From IMG/VR virus record IMGVR_UViG_3300046722_000388, positions 1 to 23,027 of that record: 23,027 nt of DNA; one strand, written 5' to 3'. The notes beneath the pieces are model-generated. The model was not told where the DNA came from. It ran no database searches and saw nothing but the letters and a program-made list of their open reading frames with translations. The position numbers and the translations under genes are program-made. This DNA comes from a virus. The stretch's first letter is position 1. Each line of letters opens with the position of its first letter. Positions 8,222 through 22,014 of the stretch are shown piece after piece.

Positions 8222-9064
8222 CTAGCTCGTCGGCGGCGCCACGGTCGGTCGCGACGCCGGGTCGCACGCCGCATCCCCGGCGGCGCTCAACGAGTCCGGC
8301 CCCGTCGAGTAGTGGACGACGGACTGGCACGCGCTGCCGTCCGCGGTCCACACGAACTCCTGGCCGGTCACGCTTCGCCCATCGGCGCCCGGTACGCCCT
8401 GGTCGCCCTTCGCTCCCGTGGCGCCCTTGCACGTGCCGTCCGCCTGGTCTCCGCAGTACGAGGCGACCTGGGCGCGCACCTGCTCGTCGGTGGCGTTTGC
8501 GCCCGGCTCCCCCTGGTCACCTTTTGGGCCCTGGCACCGCGCGCTCCCGCACACCGCGGTGACGGCAGCGAGCACCTGCTCCGCGGTCGGGGCCGGGGCA
8601 TCCTTCCCGGCGGCCGGGGGATGGGCGGCGTACACCTGGGCCACCAGGTCCATCACCTCGTTCACGGTGACCGCCTTGCCCGCGATCTGCGAATTCACCA
8701 GGGCCACCACCTGGTCCCGGTCCAGGCCGGAGCTGCCGCCCACCACCGGTGCGGGCTCGCCCTGCACGGCCTGCTTCGCCTTGTCGACGGTCGTCGAACA
8801 GGCGTTCGGGATGGCGCGCAGGTCCGCCCCGAGCTGATCCTGGCGCTTGCACAGCTGGTCCAGGGTCAGCACCGCGGGCGCCGTGTCCTGCTTCACCGCG
8901 GCGGTCTCGTTCTGCGCAGACTGGCCGGTCAGGATCACCGCGATGAACACGCCGGCCATGGCCAGCATGCCCACGATCGCGATGACCGCGAGCACCACCG
9001 TCGACGGCGGCCGCTTCTTGGCCGGCTGGTGGTCGGTCCGGGGAAGATCGTCGAGCACGGTCAT
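8222..9064 (-). CDS. membrane-anchored collagen-like protein
   Basis: The 280 residues have a short basic cytoplasmic N-terminus, one transmembrane helix (about 22-46, VVLAVIAIVGMLAMAGVF) and a large outer part. Two short Gly-X-Y blocks (QGPKGDQGEPGAN, about 178-190, and KGATGAKGDQGVPGADGRS, about 213-231) are separated by a globular piece with paired cysteines. A C-terminal domain follows with VWTADGSACQSVVHYSTG. Type II orientation is expected. Collagen-like repeats form trimers in phage fibres, but this one is tethered to a membrane, so it more likely acts at the host surface or during lysis or assembly. Last gene of the structural operon; ATGA overlap upstream. Confidence 0.75.
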   Translation of the reverse strand: MTVLDDLPRTDHQPAKKRPPSTVVLAVIAIVGMLAMAGVFIAVILTGQSAQNETAAVKQDTAPAVLTLDQLCKRQDQLGADLRAIPNACSTTVDKAKQAVQGEPAPVVGGSSGLDRDQVVALVNSQIAGKAVTVNEVMDLVAQVYAAHPPAAGKDAPAPTAEQVLAAVTAVCGSARCQGPKGDQGEPGANATDEQVRAQVASYCGDQADGTCKGATGAKGDQGVPGADGRSVTGQEFVWTADGSACQSVVHYSTGPDSLSAAGDAACDPASRPTVAPPTS

Positions 9065-10062: not shown

Positions 10063-12255
10063 TCAGCCCGCCGTCCCACTCGAAGCCGGCGGGAAAGGGC
10101 GCACCACCTCGTCGAGCAGGCCTCCCTGGATGATCTCCAGGCTGAGCGCTTCCTGCTCCGCGGCCAGCTTGTCCGGCGCGTCCTCCGGCGTGCGGGCCCA
10201 GTCACCAAGGAGGTTGCTCAGCTCCGCGGCGACCATCTTCGCGAAGGCCTTCAGGTCCATGCCGTCCGGCCCGAACTCCGCGGCGGGGCGGGTGGCACCG
10301 GCCGCGACGAGCGCCACCTGGCCAACGCCGGACGCGACGCGAGCCCGCGGTACCGGGTAGCCGGGCACGTTGACCGCGAGCACGCCCACCATCTCCAGGC
10401 GACCGCCCACCCCGCGCCAGTCGCCGGACGGCGGCGCGGCCATCAGCTTCGTCAGGTCGACCTCGGACAGCTCAGGGCGAACCCGGCCGGCCACCCAGAT
10501 GCCGTGCCGGTCCTCGCCGGCGGCCAGGTCGGCGGCCACGGTGCCCGTGTTGTCGTAGTGGCTGGTCGTCTCGTCGACGCTGGCCGACAGGCTCGCGTGG
10601 CCGGTGTTCATGGTCAGGTGCCCCACGCCCACGGTGCGCACCTCATCGCCGTCGGCTACGCGCATCGCGCCCGTGTTGAAGTAGGCGTAGTCGGATGCCG
10701 ACTTCGGCGGCGGGGTGCAGCGCTTGGACACGCCGATGTGGCACGTGTTCCAGGTGGCGATGTGGCCGAACACGCGGCCGTCGTCGGTGAAGGTCAGCGG
10801 CGTGGGCTCGCTCAGCCCGGGGTCGGTGAACCAGTCGAGCGGCGGCAGGTCGGCGAGCCCCTTCTTCTTCAGGAACGCGGGCTTCGCCTTCTTCTTCGTG
10901 CCGTCGGCGTTCTCGTCTGCCTCGTCGGCGCCACCGTCCGCGGCGTCCTCGGGGTCGGCCTTCTTCTTCTTGGCGTTCTTCAGGAACGCGGGCGGCAGCG
11001 CCATCTCGCCGGCCAGGCACGGAGAGCAGGTGTCGCCGTACTCGGGGATGGCGATGGACGCGGTGACCGCCTGGACGCCGTGCTGGAGCAGGTACGCCGC
11101 GAGGCCTTCGGGCGTGCGCTGGTCCTCCGGCACCTCGTCGTCGGCGGCGATGGTCGGCCGCTCGCCGTCGATCTCCACGTAGCCGTCGGGGAAGGCGGGG
11201 ATGGCGCACAGCGTGGTGGCCGCGATCTTCGCGTTCGAGACGGTGACGCGGTGGGACTCGGTGCCGTCCTCGGCGTAGGTCACGTCGTCGGTGAAATCGC
11301 CCTCCGACAGGTCCACCGAGTTGCCGGTGAGGTAGCCGCGCCGGGCGTAGTCGCCGCCCTTGCTGTCGCCGTCGACCTCACCGCGGCCCTGCCACACGAA
11401 GGTGCCCTTCGGCAGCGGCTCGCCGGTCTGCTTGGAGACGAACTCCTCGCCGGGGATCTTCCACAGCTCGTTGATCTTGCCGACGACTTCGGCGCCGCTG
11501 TGGCCTCCGTTGCCCGTGTTGACCGTCTGGGCGAACACGCTCAGCGGCGGCTTGCGGAACTCGATGGTGCCCGGCTCCAGGTAGCGCCCGTCGGCGGTCT
11601 CCATGCCTTCGACGGCGAGGCACGGCCAGAACGCCGGCAACCCCTGGGTAGCGGCCTCGCGGTCCTTCGTGGCTTCGGCCATCTCGGTCACTCCTTCGGT
11701 GGCGTAGACGCTGTCGTGATCGTCGCTCGCGATCAGCGGGAAGTCGAAGTGCTGCCCGCCCAGTGCGAGCCGGATCGTGGAGAACGATGCTTCTCCGTCG
11801 GCCGTCGGCAGCACGCCCGGGTCCAGGTCGAACCCGGCGGTGATGTGCGGGAGGTACGGCTCGTGCTGCTCGGGGTAGAGCGCGCCCAGCGCGTCGGCAG
11901 CGAGCCCCGCGGCGCGGCTGGCCAGCATGTCGAGCTGGTCGTCCTCGTCGCCGTCATGGTCACCGGGCTGGAGCGCGGTCACCGTGGCGGGCTTGAAGGC
12001 GCCGGTGGGTCCGCCGTCGCGGTTCCAGATGGCCGTACCGAGGATGCGCACCGACAGCGGCCCGCGATTGAGCGCGAGGGCGGCCACCTGGCTCTTCAGT
12101 GTGTCGACCATGACCGGCGGCAGGTCGGCCACGTCGTCACCGAGGAAGCACAGCGTGCAGTGGATCTCGCTGGCCGGGTCGCCGCCGGGCACCGTGTAGC
12201 GACCGGGGTTGTCCGGGATCAGGGCGATCATGCCGCCGGTCTGCTCGTCAGCCAC
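10063..12255 (-). CDS. 2H phosphoesterase-capsid maturation protease fusion
   Basis: 730 residues in at least three parts. Residues 1-185 are a 2H phosphoesterase (2'-5' RNA ligase-like) domain with both HxT motifs: H32-C-T34 (EIHCTLCFLGD) and H137-I-T139 (YLPHITAGFD). From about 205 (FWPCLAVEGMETADGRYLEP) to about 365 is a region like actinophage capsid maturation proteases. A Lys/acidic low-complexity linker with two PAFLK blocks follows. The C-terminal domain (VFGHIATWNTCHIGVSKRCT; later GIWVAGRVRPELSE and SGDWRGVGGRLEMVGVLAVN) is typical of the same phage family. The GTG at 12255 overlaps the previous gene. An in-frame ATG with ideal AAGGAG exists at codon 192, and a -1 slip site near the end. 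Catalytic protease residues are not certain. Confidence 0.85.
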   Translation of the reverse strand: MADEQTGGMIALIPDNPGRYTVPGGDPASEIHCTLCFLGDDVADLPPVMVDTLKSQVAALALNRGPLSVRILGTAIWNRDGGPTGAFKPATVTALQPGDHDGDEDDQLDMLASRAAGLAADALGALYPEQHEPYLPHITAGFDLDPGVLPTADGEASFSTIRLALGGQHFDFPLIASDDHDSVYATEGVTEMAEATKDREAATQGLPAFWPCLAVEGMETADGRYLEPGTIEFRKPPLSVFAQTVNTGNGGHSGAEVVGKINELWKIPGEEFVSKQTGEPLPKGTFVWQGRGEVDGDSKGGDYARRGYLTGNSVDLSEGDFTDDVTYAEDGTESHRVTVSNAKIAATTLCAIPAFPDGYVEIDGERPTIAADDEVPEDQRTPEGLAAYLLQHGVQAVTASIAIPEYGDTCSPCLAGEMALPPAFLKNAKKKKADPEDAADGGADEADENADGTKKKAKPAFLKKKGLADLPPLDWFTDPGLSEPTPLTFTDDGRVFGHIATWNTCHIGVSKRCTPPPKSASDYAYFNTGAMRVADGDEVRTVGVGHLTMNTGHASLSASVDETTSHYDNTGTVAADLAAGEDRHGIWVAGRVRPELSEVDLTKLMAAPPSGDWRGVGGRLEMVGVLAVNVPGYPVPRARVASGVGQVALVAAGATRPAAEFGPDGMDLKAFAKMVAAELSNLLGDWARTPEDAPDKLAAEQEALSLEIIQGGLLDEVVRPFPPASSGTAG
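10067..10099 (-). promoter_or_regulatory. putative -1 programmed frameshift site
   Basis: The heptamer CCCTTTC (10099-10093) is read C_CCT_TTC in the protease frame, the X_XXY_YYZ form. A 7-bp hairpin (CCCGCCG at 10093-10087 with CGGCGGG at 10073-10067) begins at its last base, just before the zero-frame stop at 10065. Slipping gives 93 more residues to the stop at 9812. The hairpin is closer than the usual 5-9 nt. Confidence 0.55.
11682..11696 (-). promoter_or_regulatory. internal ribosome site and ATG inside the fusion gene
   Basis: AAGGAG (11696-11691) lies 8 nt before an in-frame ATG (codon 192), at the joint between the 2H domain and the protease domain. It could give a protease-only product of about 539 residues. 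Confidence 0.6.
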
Positions 12256-18966: not shown

Positions 18967-19370
18967 GCGTCCTTCTCGACGTAGAAGGCTTCGATGAGGT
19001 ACCGCGCGACGGAGACCCAGTTCGAGCCCACGAGCGGCTGGCCGTTGAAGTGGTCCGACAGCCAGTAATCCAGCTCCTCGACGGTGACGGCCCGGCGCAC
19101 GCCGTCCGGCACCGGCACAAGCTCGCGCGGAGCCGGCCGCTGCTTGGGCCATACCGCGGGCACGTCTTGGTCGTCGGCGAACCACTGCTTGTCGCCGTTC
19201 GGCCCGACCTCGACTCGCCAGACCATCCCGCACGGACGCTTGGCGTCGCCCAGCGGTGACCGGCACTCCCAGCGCGCCCCGACCTTCACGCCCCAGCTGA
19301 GCCACGGCAGCTTGCACACGTGCTCCTGGGCGCCGGGCGGTAGCCACTTGCCCTTCATCCGGTCGGCCAT
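18963..19370 (-). CDS. hypothetical protein with possible zinc site (135 aa)
   Basis: The ATG at 19370 overlaps the WhiB-fusion stop as TGATG. An N-terminal segment with three Cys (EHVCKLPWLSWG; WECRSPLGDAKRPCGMVWRV) suggests a metal site of about 30 residues. A strand-rich middle and a helical C-terminus (VTVEELDYWLSDHFNG, NWVSVARYLIEAFYV) follow. Family not recognised. Confidence 0.68.
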   Translation of the reverse strand: MADRMKGKWLPPGAQEHVCKLPWLSWGVKVGARWECRSPLGDAKRPCGMVWRVEVGPNGDKQWFADDQDVPAVWPKQRPAPRELVPVPDGVRRAVTVEELDYWLSDHFNGQPLVGSNWVSVARYLIEAFYVEKDA

Positions 19371-19975
19371 CAGGTTTCCCTTCCGTGGTCCGCCGGGTTG
19401 GCCAGCGGGTTGCAGATGCAGTGAGGGTCCTTGCACAGGCAGTAGTCGTTCAGCTCCTCATCGTCCAGGTTCATCACCGGCGCGTCCTCCGCGGCGTGGC
19501 CGCACTTCTCGCACCGGCCCCAGTCGACCGTCTTCCGGTCGATCACGCGCATTGCGTCGTCGAACTTCTGCCGGGCGGTCTTGAAGGCTCCGAACATGAT
19601 CATCCTTTTCCGGGTTTTCGGGTCAGCCGGCGGACGCTCCGGACCGTGGAGCGGTTCCTGCCTCAGCCAGCGGAGGTTGCGCTCCATCAGGCCACCCCAG
19701 ACTCCGTAGTGCGAGGCGTCCGGGTGGCTGATGGCGTACTCCAGGCAGCGCACGCGCACTGGACAGCGGAAGCACAGGGCCCGCGCCTTCCGGTCGTTGT
19801 TGCTGACCTTGGCGCCTTCGGCGACGAAGTAGAACTCCGGGCCGACCTGGGCGCACAGCGCGCCGGGGAATCCGAACCCGCGGTCCACGTCCAGCCCGCG
19901 GGCGAGGACGGCGACCGCCCGGGAGTTCAGCGCGGGGTACGAGCTGGCGCCGCCGTTGCGGCCTGGACGGATCAT
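19370..19975 (-). CDS. WhiB-family regulator fused to a cysteine-rich zinc-ribbon-like tail
   Basis: Residues about 35-105 are WhiB-like: C41, then C68-FR-C71-PVRVR-C77 (four iron-sulfur ligands) and the GVWGG turn (91-95). WhiB proteins hold an Fe-S cluster and bind the main sigma factor; phage versions can alter host transcription. From about 125 on a second module carries CEKC (C155, C158) and CLCKDPHCIC (C179, C181, C186, C188). An internal ATG (M125 or M127) after AAAAGG suggests the second module could also be made alone, or that two genes fused. ATGA overlap upstream. Confidence 0.8.
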   Translation of the reverse strand: MIRPGRNGGASSYPALNSRAVAVLARGLDVDRGFGFPGALCAQVGPEFYFVAEGAKVSNNDRKARALCFRCPVRVRCLEYAISHPDASHYGVWGGLMERNLRWLRQEPLHGPERPPADPKTRKRMIMFGAFKTARQKFDDAMRVIDRKTVDWGRCEKCGHAAEDAPVMNLDDEELNDYCLCKDPHCICNPLANPADHGRET

Positions 19976-20741: not shown

Positions 20742-20828
20742 TCATCGGTGAGGGCAGTTCGGTCCGTGGCCCTCGTTCGGGAACCGGCCGCACGTCCCGC
20801 ACTGCTGAGGGTGCTTCGTCCTGCTCAT
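20742..20828 (-). CDS. zinc-finger-like micro-protein (28 aa)
   Basis: ATG at 20828 overlapping the Ltp-gene stop as ATGA. The sequence MSRTKHPQQCGTCGRFPNEG is followed by HGPNCPHR, giving CxxC and a H/C-x-x-H cluster that could bind one zinc ion. A terminator follows within 10 bp. The overlap, Cys/His spacing and operon place support a real gene although it is very short. Role unknown. Confidence 0.6.
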   Translation of the reverse strand: MSRTKHPQQCGTCGRFPNEGHGPNCPHR

Positions 20829-21457
20829 CTGCACGCCGCCGTCTGGTGCGCGCCGTACGTGGCCTGGGCCTTGGTGAACTGGTCCCCCGCCTTGGACGAC
20901 AGCTGTCCGGCGAGCCCGGAGCACGAGAACGACGTGAAGTCGAGATACTCCTGAGCCGCCTTCGCGGCCTGCGCGTTCCAGTCCACGCTCAAGCTGTCCA
21001 CGGCCTGGGTGGCCACGTCCTTGGGATAGCCGTCGCCCGCCTTCGAGGACAGCTGCCCGATCAGGCCGTCGTGAGAGAAGGCCTTGAAGCCCAGGTAGGA
21101 CTGCGCGGAATCGCGTGCCTGCTGGACCTGGGGCGGGAACTCCGGCGCCTGAGTGACGGGCGGCGCGACGGAGACGACATCGGCCGTACCCGGGATCTTG
21201 GCCCACTCGCACGTGTACGGGTCCCAGGCCACCGAGCTTCCGTCGGCCGGAGGAGTCGGCGCGCCCTTGGGCTCCGGGCAGACGGAGGTGAGTCCGGTGG
21301 ACGGGGCAGCGGCCGGGGTCGCGGCCGGAGTAGTGCCGCCGCTCGTGACGCCCAGGACGATCCCGAGGACAACGAGGCCACCGACGACGGCGCCGGTGAT
21401 CTTCAATCCGCGGTGCTTCTTCCTGGGCTTCGGCGGAACGGGCTGGGGGTGGGACAT
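20825..21457 (-). CDS. Ltp-like membrane-anchored superinfection exclusion candidate
   Basis: 210 residues. A basic N-terminus precedes a single transmembrane helix (about 18-38, KITGAVVGGLVVLGIVLGVT); then a Thr/Pro-rich spacer with two Cys (C60, C83). Two tandem Ltp repeats follow (about 113-161 and 162-207), each with A-x-x-YL-x-F-x-x-FS-x-x-GL-x-x-QLSSKAGD-x-(Y/F). This is the host-cell-surface lipoprotein family (PF07553), whose phage TP-J34 member blocks DNA injection by related phages. Here the anchor is a helix, not a lipobox. Role in exclusion is inferred from the family. Confidence 0.85.
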   Translation of the reverse strand: MSHPQPVPPKPRKKHRGLKITGAVVGGLVVLGIVLGVTSGGTTPAATPAAAPSTGLTSVCPEPKGAPTPPADGSSVAWDPYTCEWAKIPGTADVVSVAPPVTQAPEFPPQVQQARDSAQSYLGFKAFSHDGLIGQLSSKAGDGYPKDVATQAVDSLSVDWNAQAAKAAQEYLDFTSFSCSGLAGQLSSKAGDQFTKAQATYGAHQTAACR

Positions 21458-21489: not shown

Positions 21490-21540
21490 GGGCCCGGGAG
21501 GGGTTGAACCTCCGCTGGCCGATCCGGTATCGGCGGGCCC
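21490..21540 (-). other. tRNA-like structure lacking a D-arm (51 nt)
   Basis: Leftward, GGGCCCG (21540-21534) pairs perfectly with CGGGCCC (21496-21490). Next to the 3' arm is a canonical T-arm, stem GGAGG/CCTCC with 7-nt loop TTCAACC (21513-21497). Between lies one short hairpin (CCGAT/ATCGG, loop ACCGG). No D-arm, no U33-type anticodon loop, no encoded CCA. It lies 7 bp after the stop at 21548. Not a normal tRNA; could be a decayed tRNA or a structured RNA. Confidence 0.5.
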
Positions 21541-21547
21541 TCCTGAG

Positions 21548-21946
21548 TCAGTAGCGGACGGGGCGCTTCTCGCCCTTGAACTCGCGAATGATCTTCACGA
21601 GGAACCCGGCCTCGTCCTCCGGGACCAGCGCGAGCACGTCGGCCACGGCCTGCTTGGTGGCCTTGGCCACGGTCATCCCGTCGAGCATCAGCTCGCGGCG
21701 GCGTTCGGCCATCGCGGCAGCGGCGCGGTCCATGAAGTCGTTCGCGGTGAACTGGCGGGCAGGCCAGGGGCGCCCGCTCCGGCCACAGTCGAGGCAGTCG
21801 ATCTGCTCGTGATCGAGTTCCTGGCCACCGGCCGTTGCCTTGCGGCCGTTGAACGCCACGTTGGCGCTCTTGCACGCCGGGCAGGTCCAGCTCCGGATGT
21901 CCTCGGGAGCGGTGACCTCTTCGATGCGGATCGAGCTGGTGTTCAT
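21548..21946 (-). CDS. zinc-ribbon protein (132 aa)
   Basis: First gene after promoter P9; ATG at 21946 after GGAGG. An N-terminal zinc ribbon is clear: CPAC (C22, C25) and CLDC (C51, C54), about 26 residues apart. A helical C-terminal part follows (NDFMDRAAAAMAERRRELML, DGMTVAKATKQAVADVLALV, then KIIREFKGEKRPVRY). This layout suits a small nucleic-acid-binding or transcription-related protein. No closer family is recognised. Confidence 0.75.
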   Translation of the reverse strand: MNTSSIRIEEVTAPEDIRSWTCPACKSANVAFNGRKATAGGQELDHEQIDCLDCGRSGRPWPARQFTANDFMDRAAAAMAERRRELMLDGMTVAKATKQAVADVLALVPEDEAGFLVKIIREFKGEKRPVRY

Positions 21947-21985
21947 GGCGGGCCCTCCTGGGCTTCGGTGTTGGTGACTGGTTCA

Positions 21986-22014
21986 ATCTATCCCCCCATA
22001 ATGGGGGGTGTCAA
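21986..22014 (-). promoter_or_regulatory. palindromic promoter/operator site P9 (near-ideal)
   Basis: Leftward: -35 TTGACA (22014-22009), 17-bp perfect palindrome CCCCCCATTATGGGGGG (22008-21992), -10 ATAGAT (21991-21986) or TAGATT as TANNNT. Preceded by the terminator at 22021 and facing the gene at 21946. Confidence 0.8.

What the first reader, a model, noticed from the sequence alone, without database searches (positions are those of the whole stretch)
20825..21457. Probable superinfection exclusion protein with Ltp repeats
Two Ltp repeats (FSxxGLxxQLSSKAGD) lie outside a single membrane helix. In phage TP-J34 the Ltp lipoprotein blocks DNA injection. This one is not a lipoprotein by sequence but a helix-anchored version, and sits in its own P9-driven operon with two small zinc proteins, fitting expression separate from the structural genes.
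Basis: partly seen in the sequence, partly recalled or inferred. Interest (0 to 1): 0.6.

Follow-up and report, generated by a model that had tools for sequence, protein, structure and literature searches.

The report
Phage Ltp-type infection-blocking membrane protein
This is a phage gene for a membrane-anchored protein of a known family (Ltp) that probably lets an infected cell block DNA entry by a second phage; the find is solid but ordinary, apart from an unexplained, strictly conserved two-cysteine segment.

Summary
The ORF at 20825-21457 (minus strand, 210 aa) is real. It has two Ltp repeats (PF07553, E 1.2e-24), and the modelled repeat domain (residues 109-206, pLDDT ~97) superposes on the crystal structure of TP-J34 Ltp (4eqq: TM 0.92, rmsd 1.4 Å). 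It has no lipobox but one N-terminal signal-anchor helix. The gene is under purifying selection and shared by phages of different gene content, so it travels as an accessory gene. The most likely function is Ltp-type superinfection exclusion; this is inferred from homology, nothing was assayed. Helix anchoring is not special: by a rough script, 25 of 41 viral Ltp loci have a signal peptide or membrane helix rather than a lipobox. Not noted before: a two-cysteine segment (residues 58-93) is the most constrained part (dN/dS 0-0.05) and matches no known family; a relic of a phage tRNA lies just upstream. Verdict: a new member of a known kind.

The parts
20825..21457 (-). Ltp-type protein, 210 aa, likely superinfection exclusion protein
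   Evidence: PF07553 E 1.2e-24; phrog_15667 'superinfection exclusion' E 3.8e-39; Foldseek 4eqq TM 0.92; dN/dS 0.20-0.25
21347..21400 (-). Signal-anchor helix (aa 20-37) after a basic N-terminal tail; no lipobox
   Evidence: hydropathy and sequence; model helix 23-34
21179..21286 (-). Two-cysteine segment (aa 58-93; C60, C83), the most constrained part of the protein
   Evidence: 0-2 nonsynonymous versus 8-10 synonymous differences in three comparisons; no Pfam hit above its cut-off; no match in phages
20996..21133 (-). Ltp repeat 1 (aa 109-154)
   Evidence: PF07553; three helices at pLDDT ~97
20840..20983 (-). Ltp repeat 2 (aa 159-206), holding C179; C209 lies just after it
   Evidence: PF07553; three helices at pLDDT ~97
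21985..22014 (-). Promoter-like site TTGACA-N18-TAGATT whose spacer is filled by the palindrome CCCCCATTATGGGGG (21993-22007)
   Evidence: 10 of 12 consensus positions; palindrome sites far above chance in the window
21548..21946 (-). 132-aa zinc-ribbon-like protein, first gene of the operon; absent in L004
   Evidence: CPAC...CLDC pattern; sub-threshold Lar and CxxC-family hits; gene order
20742..20828 (-). 28-aa CxxC ORF overlapping the Ltp stop (ATGA)
   Evidence: translation; conserved in L003 but not in L004, L005 or L007
21490..21540 (-). tRNA relic: 7-bp acceptor stem plus T arm (GGAGG TTCAACC CCTCC), no D or anticodon arm
   Evidence: conserved in L003 and L004; 2 of 60 shuffles contain one; the same 24-nt motif overlaps ARAGORN tRNA calls in 11 of 17 other contigs

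Best explanation
The gene encodes an Ltp-type superinfection exclusion protein. A basic N-terminal tail stays in the cytoplasm, one helix crosses the membrane, and a flexible Pro/Ala/Thr-rich linker carrying a two-cysteine module presents a compact six-helix domain made of two Ltp repeats on the outer face of the membrane. There it most likely blocks DNA entry from a second phage, as TP-J34 Ltp does by binding the tape measure protein during DNA ejection. In this phage it is most likely made during infection, from a promoter that belongs to a set of palindrome-bearing promoters, rather than from a prophage. Shown by computation: ORF, repeats, fold, absence of a lipobox, purifying selection, shared palindrome. 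Inferred: topology, exclusion activity, tape measure protein as target, timing.
For: PF07553 twice, E 1.2e-24. PHROGs 'superinfection exclusion' families at 3.8e-39 and 1.3e-30 (an annotation, not a test). 33% identity to TP-J34 Ltp over the repeats. AlphaFold repeat domain pLDDT ~97; the only significant PDB match is 4eqq, TM 0.92 on the target, rmsd 1.4. dN/dS 0.20-0.25 overall against three relatives. The gene is present in phages with otherwise different gene content (L005, L006, L007), next to a serine integrase in L006, so it behaves as an accessory gene. Promoter-like TTGACA-18-TAGATT. TP-J34 Ltp acts outside the membrane against DNA injection, and its repeat domain is the active part (PMC3952083). 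An Ltp motif was already reported in a phage described as apparently obligately lytic, Gordonia phage GTE6 (PMC4524720).
Against: No functional data for any close relative. The repeats are nearly neutral (10 acidic, 8 basic), less charged than those of TP-J34 (16 acidic, 13 basic), and the relative's tape measure C-terminus is only weakly basic (+1 to +2 over the last 30-100 residues), so the published electrostatic contact is not specifically supported. PF07553 proteins also occur in bacterial genomes, where the role is not established. The most constrained part of the protein is not the Ltp repeats.
Confidence: 0.68

Rival explanations
1. Classic prophage-state exclusion: the phage is temperate and makes the protein in the lysogen, as TP-J34 does.
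For: The tested Ltp proteins are from temperate phages (PMC3952083), and a relative lies beside a serine integrase in L006.
Against: No tyrosine or serine integrase hit in the window, G001 or G002. The window bridges the two ends of G001 with a gap of ~23 nt, so the 61.4-kb record is practically complete. The gene lies between terminase and portal, and its promoter shares its palindrome with many others, so a lysogenic repressor binding there would silence it too (inference). An extrachromosomal lysogen (FtsK-like protein present) is not excluded.
Confidence: 0.17
2. The protein does something other than exclusion, for example masking or altering the host envelope, or holding a phage or host protein at the membrane, with the two-cysteine module as the active part.
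For: The two-cysteine segment is more constrained than the repeats; PF07553 occurs in bacterial genomes.
Against: The repeat domain matches the exclusion-active domain of TP-J34 Ltp in fold and length; the segment is absent from most Ltp relatives, which keep only the repeats.
Confidence: 0.2
3. The protein is a virion-associated or head-tail protein, as it lies in the structural region.
For: Position between terminase and portal; in Acinetobacter phage AbIPP1 the homologue lies within the head-tail gene block.
Against: A membrane-anchor helix; variable genomic place, outside structural genes in L006 and TP-J34.
Confidence: 0.04

Closest known systems
Ltp of Streptococcus thermophilus phage TP-J34 (PDB 4eqq; PF07553)
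   Same: Two-repeat six-helix domain (TM 0.92, 33% identity), N-terminal membrane anchor, low-complexity linker.
   Different: TP-J34 Ltp is a lipoprotein of 142 aa encoded between int and the repressor gene; here a helix anchor, 210 aa, an extra two-cysteine segment, repeats with two-residue-longer SSKAGD loops, and a place between terminase and portal.
PHROG families phrog_15667 and phrog_4980 ('superinfection exclusion')
   Same: Cover aa 97-209 (phrog_15667) or aa 12-204 including the helix (phrog_4980).
   Different: Annotation by homology only.
Ltp-like proteins of Gordonia phages (GTE6, Dexdert, Sour, Stormageddon)
   Same: Actinobacterial phages; in Dexdert the gene also lies just upstream of portal; GTE6 was noted as apparently lytic (PMC4524720).
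   Different: 35-51% identity over the repeats only; the two-cysteine segment was not found in any phage record.
gp41 of Cutibacterium acnes phages (PMC11480721)
   Same: Candidate exclusion protein of an actinobacterial phage with an N-terminal signal/transmembrane segment, expressed during infection.
   Different: Weak sequence similarity to Ltp and a different, mainly beta, predicted fold.

Membership tests
Ltp family (PF07553) | Match to the PF07553 repeat above the curated cut-off | tested here: met
   two stretches, 86.6 bits against 23.2
Ltp family (PF07553) | Two-repeat six-helix fold as in 4eqq | tested here: met
   pLDDT ~97 for aa 109-206; Foldseek TM 0.92, rmsd 1.4
TP-J34 type Ltp lipoprotein | N-terminal lipobox cysteine | tested here: not met
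   first Cys at residue 60; signal-anchor helix instead
TP-J34 type Ltp lipoprotein | Gene in the lysogeny module beside integrase and repressor | tested here: not met
   between terminase and portal; no integrase hit
Superinfection exclusion protein | Blocks infection at DNA entry when expressed | not testable with these tools
   needs expression and phage challenge
Superinfection exclusion protein | Exposed outside the cytoplasmic membrane | tested here: inconclusive
   basic tail then one helix suggests N-in/C-out; not measured; cleavage by a signal peptidase not excluded
Ltp acting on the tape measure protein | Acidic repeats facing a basic tape measure C-terminus | tested here: inconclusive
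   repeats net -2, TP-J34 -3; own tape measure C-terminus +1 to +2

The most novel reading that the evidence does not exclude
A two-part exclusion protein: the two-cysteine module (aa 58-93), found only in this small group of phages, is a second functional head, for example a disulfide-closed hairpin that binds a specific envelope or phage component, and works with the Ltp repeats in a non-integrating phage under a palindrome-controlled promoter set.
Probability: 0.25. Interest if true: 0.5.

Novelty: new member of a known kind. Interest (0 to 1): 0.3.

Why it matters
It adds a clear case of an Ltp-type exclusion gene in an actinobacterial phage that appears to lack an integrase, with the gene wired into a promoter set of the phage rather than a lysogeny module. 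If true, exclusion by Ltp proteins is also a tool of lytic infection. The conserved two-cysteine segment gives a specific, testable question: whether some Ltp proteins carry a second functional head.

Tried and rejected
Lipobox search: none. NCBIfam and PADLOC: no hit for the protein. DNA similarity of the region in phages: one weak hit only (249 bases). Two-cysteine segment in Pfam, phages and 395 genomes of the class: nothing above threshold (the genome search had no positive control, so it is weak). In viral contigs only the same group (L007 carries a diverged copy). tRNA finders and Rfam on the upstream element: no match; exact motif in 198 genomes of the class: none, so it is not simply a copy of a common host tRNA end. 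A search for a relative with an empty site failed because the other close contigs do not reach the region. Charge analysis for tape measure binding was inconclusive. Zinc proteins as obligatory partners: rejected, absent in L004.

Full report
Observation. The ORF 20825-21457 lies on the minus strand, has coding-type base composition and encodes 210 aa. Pfam finds two PF07553 repeats, E 1.2e-24, and PHROGs finds two families annotated as superinfection exclusion, best E 3.8e-39. The two repeat units share 23 of 49 residues. The window is a 23,027-base viral record with portal, head protease and WhiB genes whose relatives are mostly in actinobacteriophages.

Anatomy. The N-terminal tail, residues 1-19, is basic (PKPRKKHRGLK), 20-37 form one hydrophobic helix, and no cysteine precedes residue 60, so there is no lipobox. 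A Pro/Ala/Thr-rich linker follows, then the segment SVCPEPKGAPTPPADGSSVAWDPYTCEWAKIPGTAD, a second linker, and the repeats. AlphaFold with 37 sequences gives pLDDT ~97 for residues 109-206 and low confidence (about 50-66) before residue 100, with a short hairpin in the two-cysteine segment. Foldseek against the PDB finds only TP-J34 Ltp with significance: 4eqq, TM 0.92 and 0.86 on the target, rmsd 1.4 and 1.8. Sequence identity to TP-J34 Ltp is 33% over the repeats.

Anchor. A script that picked starts by ribosome-site and hydropathy rules sorted 41 viral loci into 25 with a signal peptide or membrane helix, 13 lipoproteins, 2 with neither and 1 truncated; genome loci gave 11, 2 and 5. The sorting is rough (for instance, L050, which looks like a two-helix protein, was called a lipoprotein), but non-lipoprotein Ltp proteins are clearly common. 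The helix anchor is therefore not a new variant.

Selection. Against L003, L004 and L005, dN/dS is 0.20-0.25 for the whole gene, 0.17-0.28 for the repeats and 0-0.05 for residues 60-93 (0-2 nonsynonymous versus 8-10 synonymous differences). These counts are small, but the direction is the same in all three pairs. The segment has no Pfam match above cut-off, no match in phage records, and among viral contigs only the same phage group was returned, plus a diverged copy in L007.

Surroundings. In G001 (61.4 kb, mostly 93-95% DNA identity to the window) the order is terminase, a few small genes, then FtsK-like and HNH genes on the opposite strand, a 73-aa ORF, the zinc-ribbon ORF, Ltp, a 28-aa ORF, small genes, portal. 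L004 keeps Ltp in the same place but lacks the zinc-ribbon and 28-aa ORFs. L005, L006 and L007 carry Ltp among different genes; in L006 a serine integrase is adjacent. The window continues across the two ends of G001 with a gap of about 23 nt, so G001 is practically a whole circular map. Neither integrase family was found in the window, G001 or G002. This supports, but does not prove, a non-integrating phage: other recombinases and plasmid-like maintenance were not excluded.

Promoter. The palindrome CCCCC-N5-GGGGG occurs at about 11 places in the window; the search gave 25 matches counting both strands and one mismatch, against 1.4 in shuffles. At 21993 it fills the spacer of TTGACA-N18-TAGATT; site 7580 shows the same arrangement with TTGACA and TACATT on the plus strand, and 3773 nearly so. 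Other sites have weaker hexamers, so the promoter reading is firm only for some. In G001 all ten exact sites lie between 10.5 and 23.2 kb or between 54.3 and 60.9 kb; none lies in the stretch between, which holds the lysin-like, replication and tail genes. The regulator that binds the palindrome is unknown. The gene thus probably belongs to a phage-wide regulated set, not to an isolated operon.

tRNA relic. At 21490-21540 (minus), about 32 nt upstream of the Ltp start codon, lies a 7-bp acceptor stem and a T arm with the loop TTCAACC, without D or anticodon arms. It is conserved in L003 and L004 and was the only hit in each; 2 of 60 shuffles of the window contain one. The 24-nt motif of its 3' half occurs in 19 viral contigs; leaving out G001 and G002, it overlaps an ARAGORN tRNA call in 11 of 17, seven of them tRNA-Met(CAT). 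It is best read as a decayed phage tRNA gene. Whether it marks the place where the gene was inserted, or still serves as a processing site, is open.

Mechanism. TP-J34 Ltp sits outside the cytoplasmic membrane, its repeat domain is the active part, and the tape measure protein is its reported target (PMC3952083). The same architecture here makes exclusion the leading explanation. The charge pattern neither supports nor excludes the tape measure contact. Expression during infection is favoured over lysogenic expression by gene position and the lack of an integrase hit; a precedent is the Ltp motif in Gordonia phage GTE6, described as apparently obligately lytic (PMC4524720).

Verdict. The gene is a new member of a known kind. 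The two-cysteine segment is the only part that invites more than routine interest.

Noticed in passing
window 280, 3773, 4171, 7161, 7580, 18083, 18263, 20678, 21993, 22316, 22385: Palindrome CCCCC-N5-GGGGG (two sites with one mismatch), at several sites set in the spacer between -35-like and -10-like hexamers; far above chance. The binding regulator is unknown. Five more viral contigs carry the same palindrome (L104, L105, L106, L108, L109).
   Followed up: partly
window 21490-21540 (-): Relic of a phage tRNA gene (acceptor stem plus T arm only) directly upstream of the Ltp gene, conserved in L003 and L004.
   Followed up: partly
L003 5839-7758 and 7761-8831 (-): FtsK/SpoIIIE-like protein with a C-terminal winged-helix-like match, next to a protein with an N-terminal hydrophobic part and an HNH endonuclease domain; the start of the second lies at the end of the window (22604 onwards). 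May bear on plasmid-like maintenance.
   Followed up: partly
window 19370-19975 (-): WhiB-like transcription factor encoded by the phage (PF02467, E 2e-15), a few genes downstream of Ltp on the same strand.
   Followed up: no
window 10063-12255 (-): Head maturation protease ORF with an N-terminal match to an RNA ligase family (phrog_2659, E 3.9e-14).
   Followed up: no
window 8222-9064 (-): Protein with an N-terminal hydrophobic helix and collagen-like / tail-fibre-like stretches.
   Followed up: no
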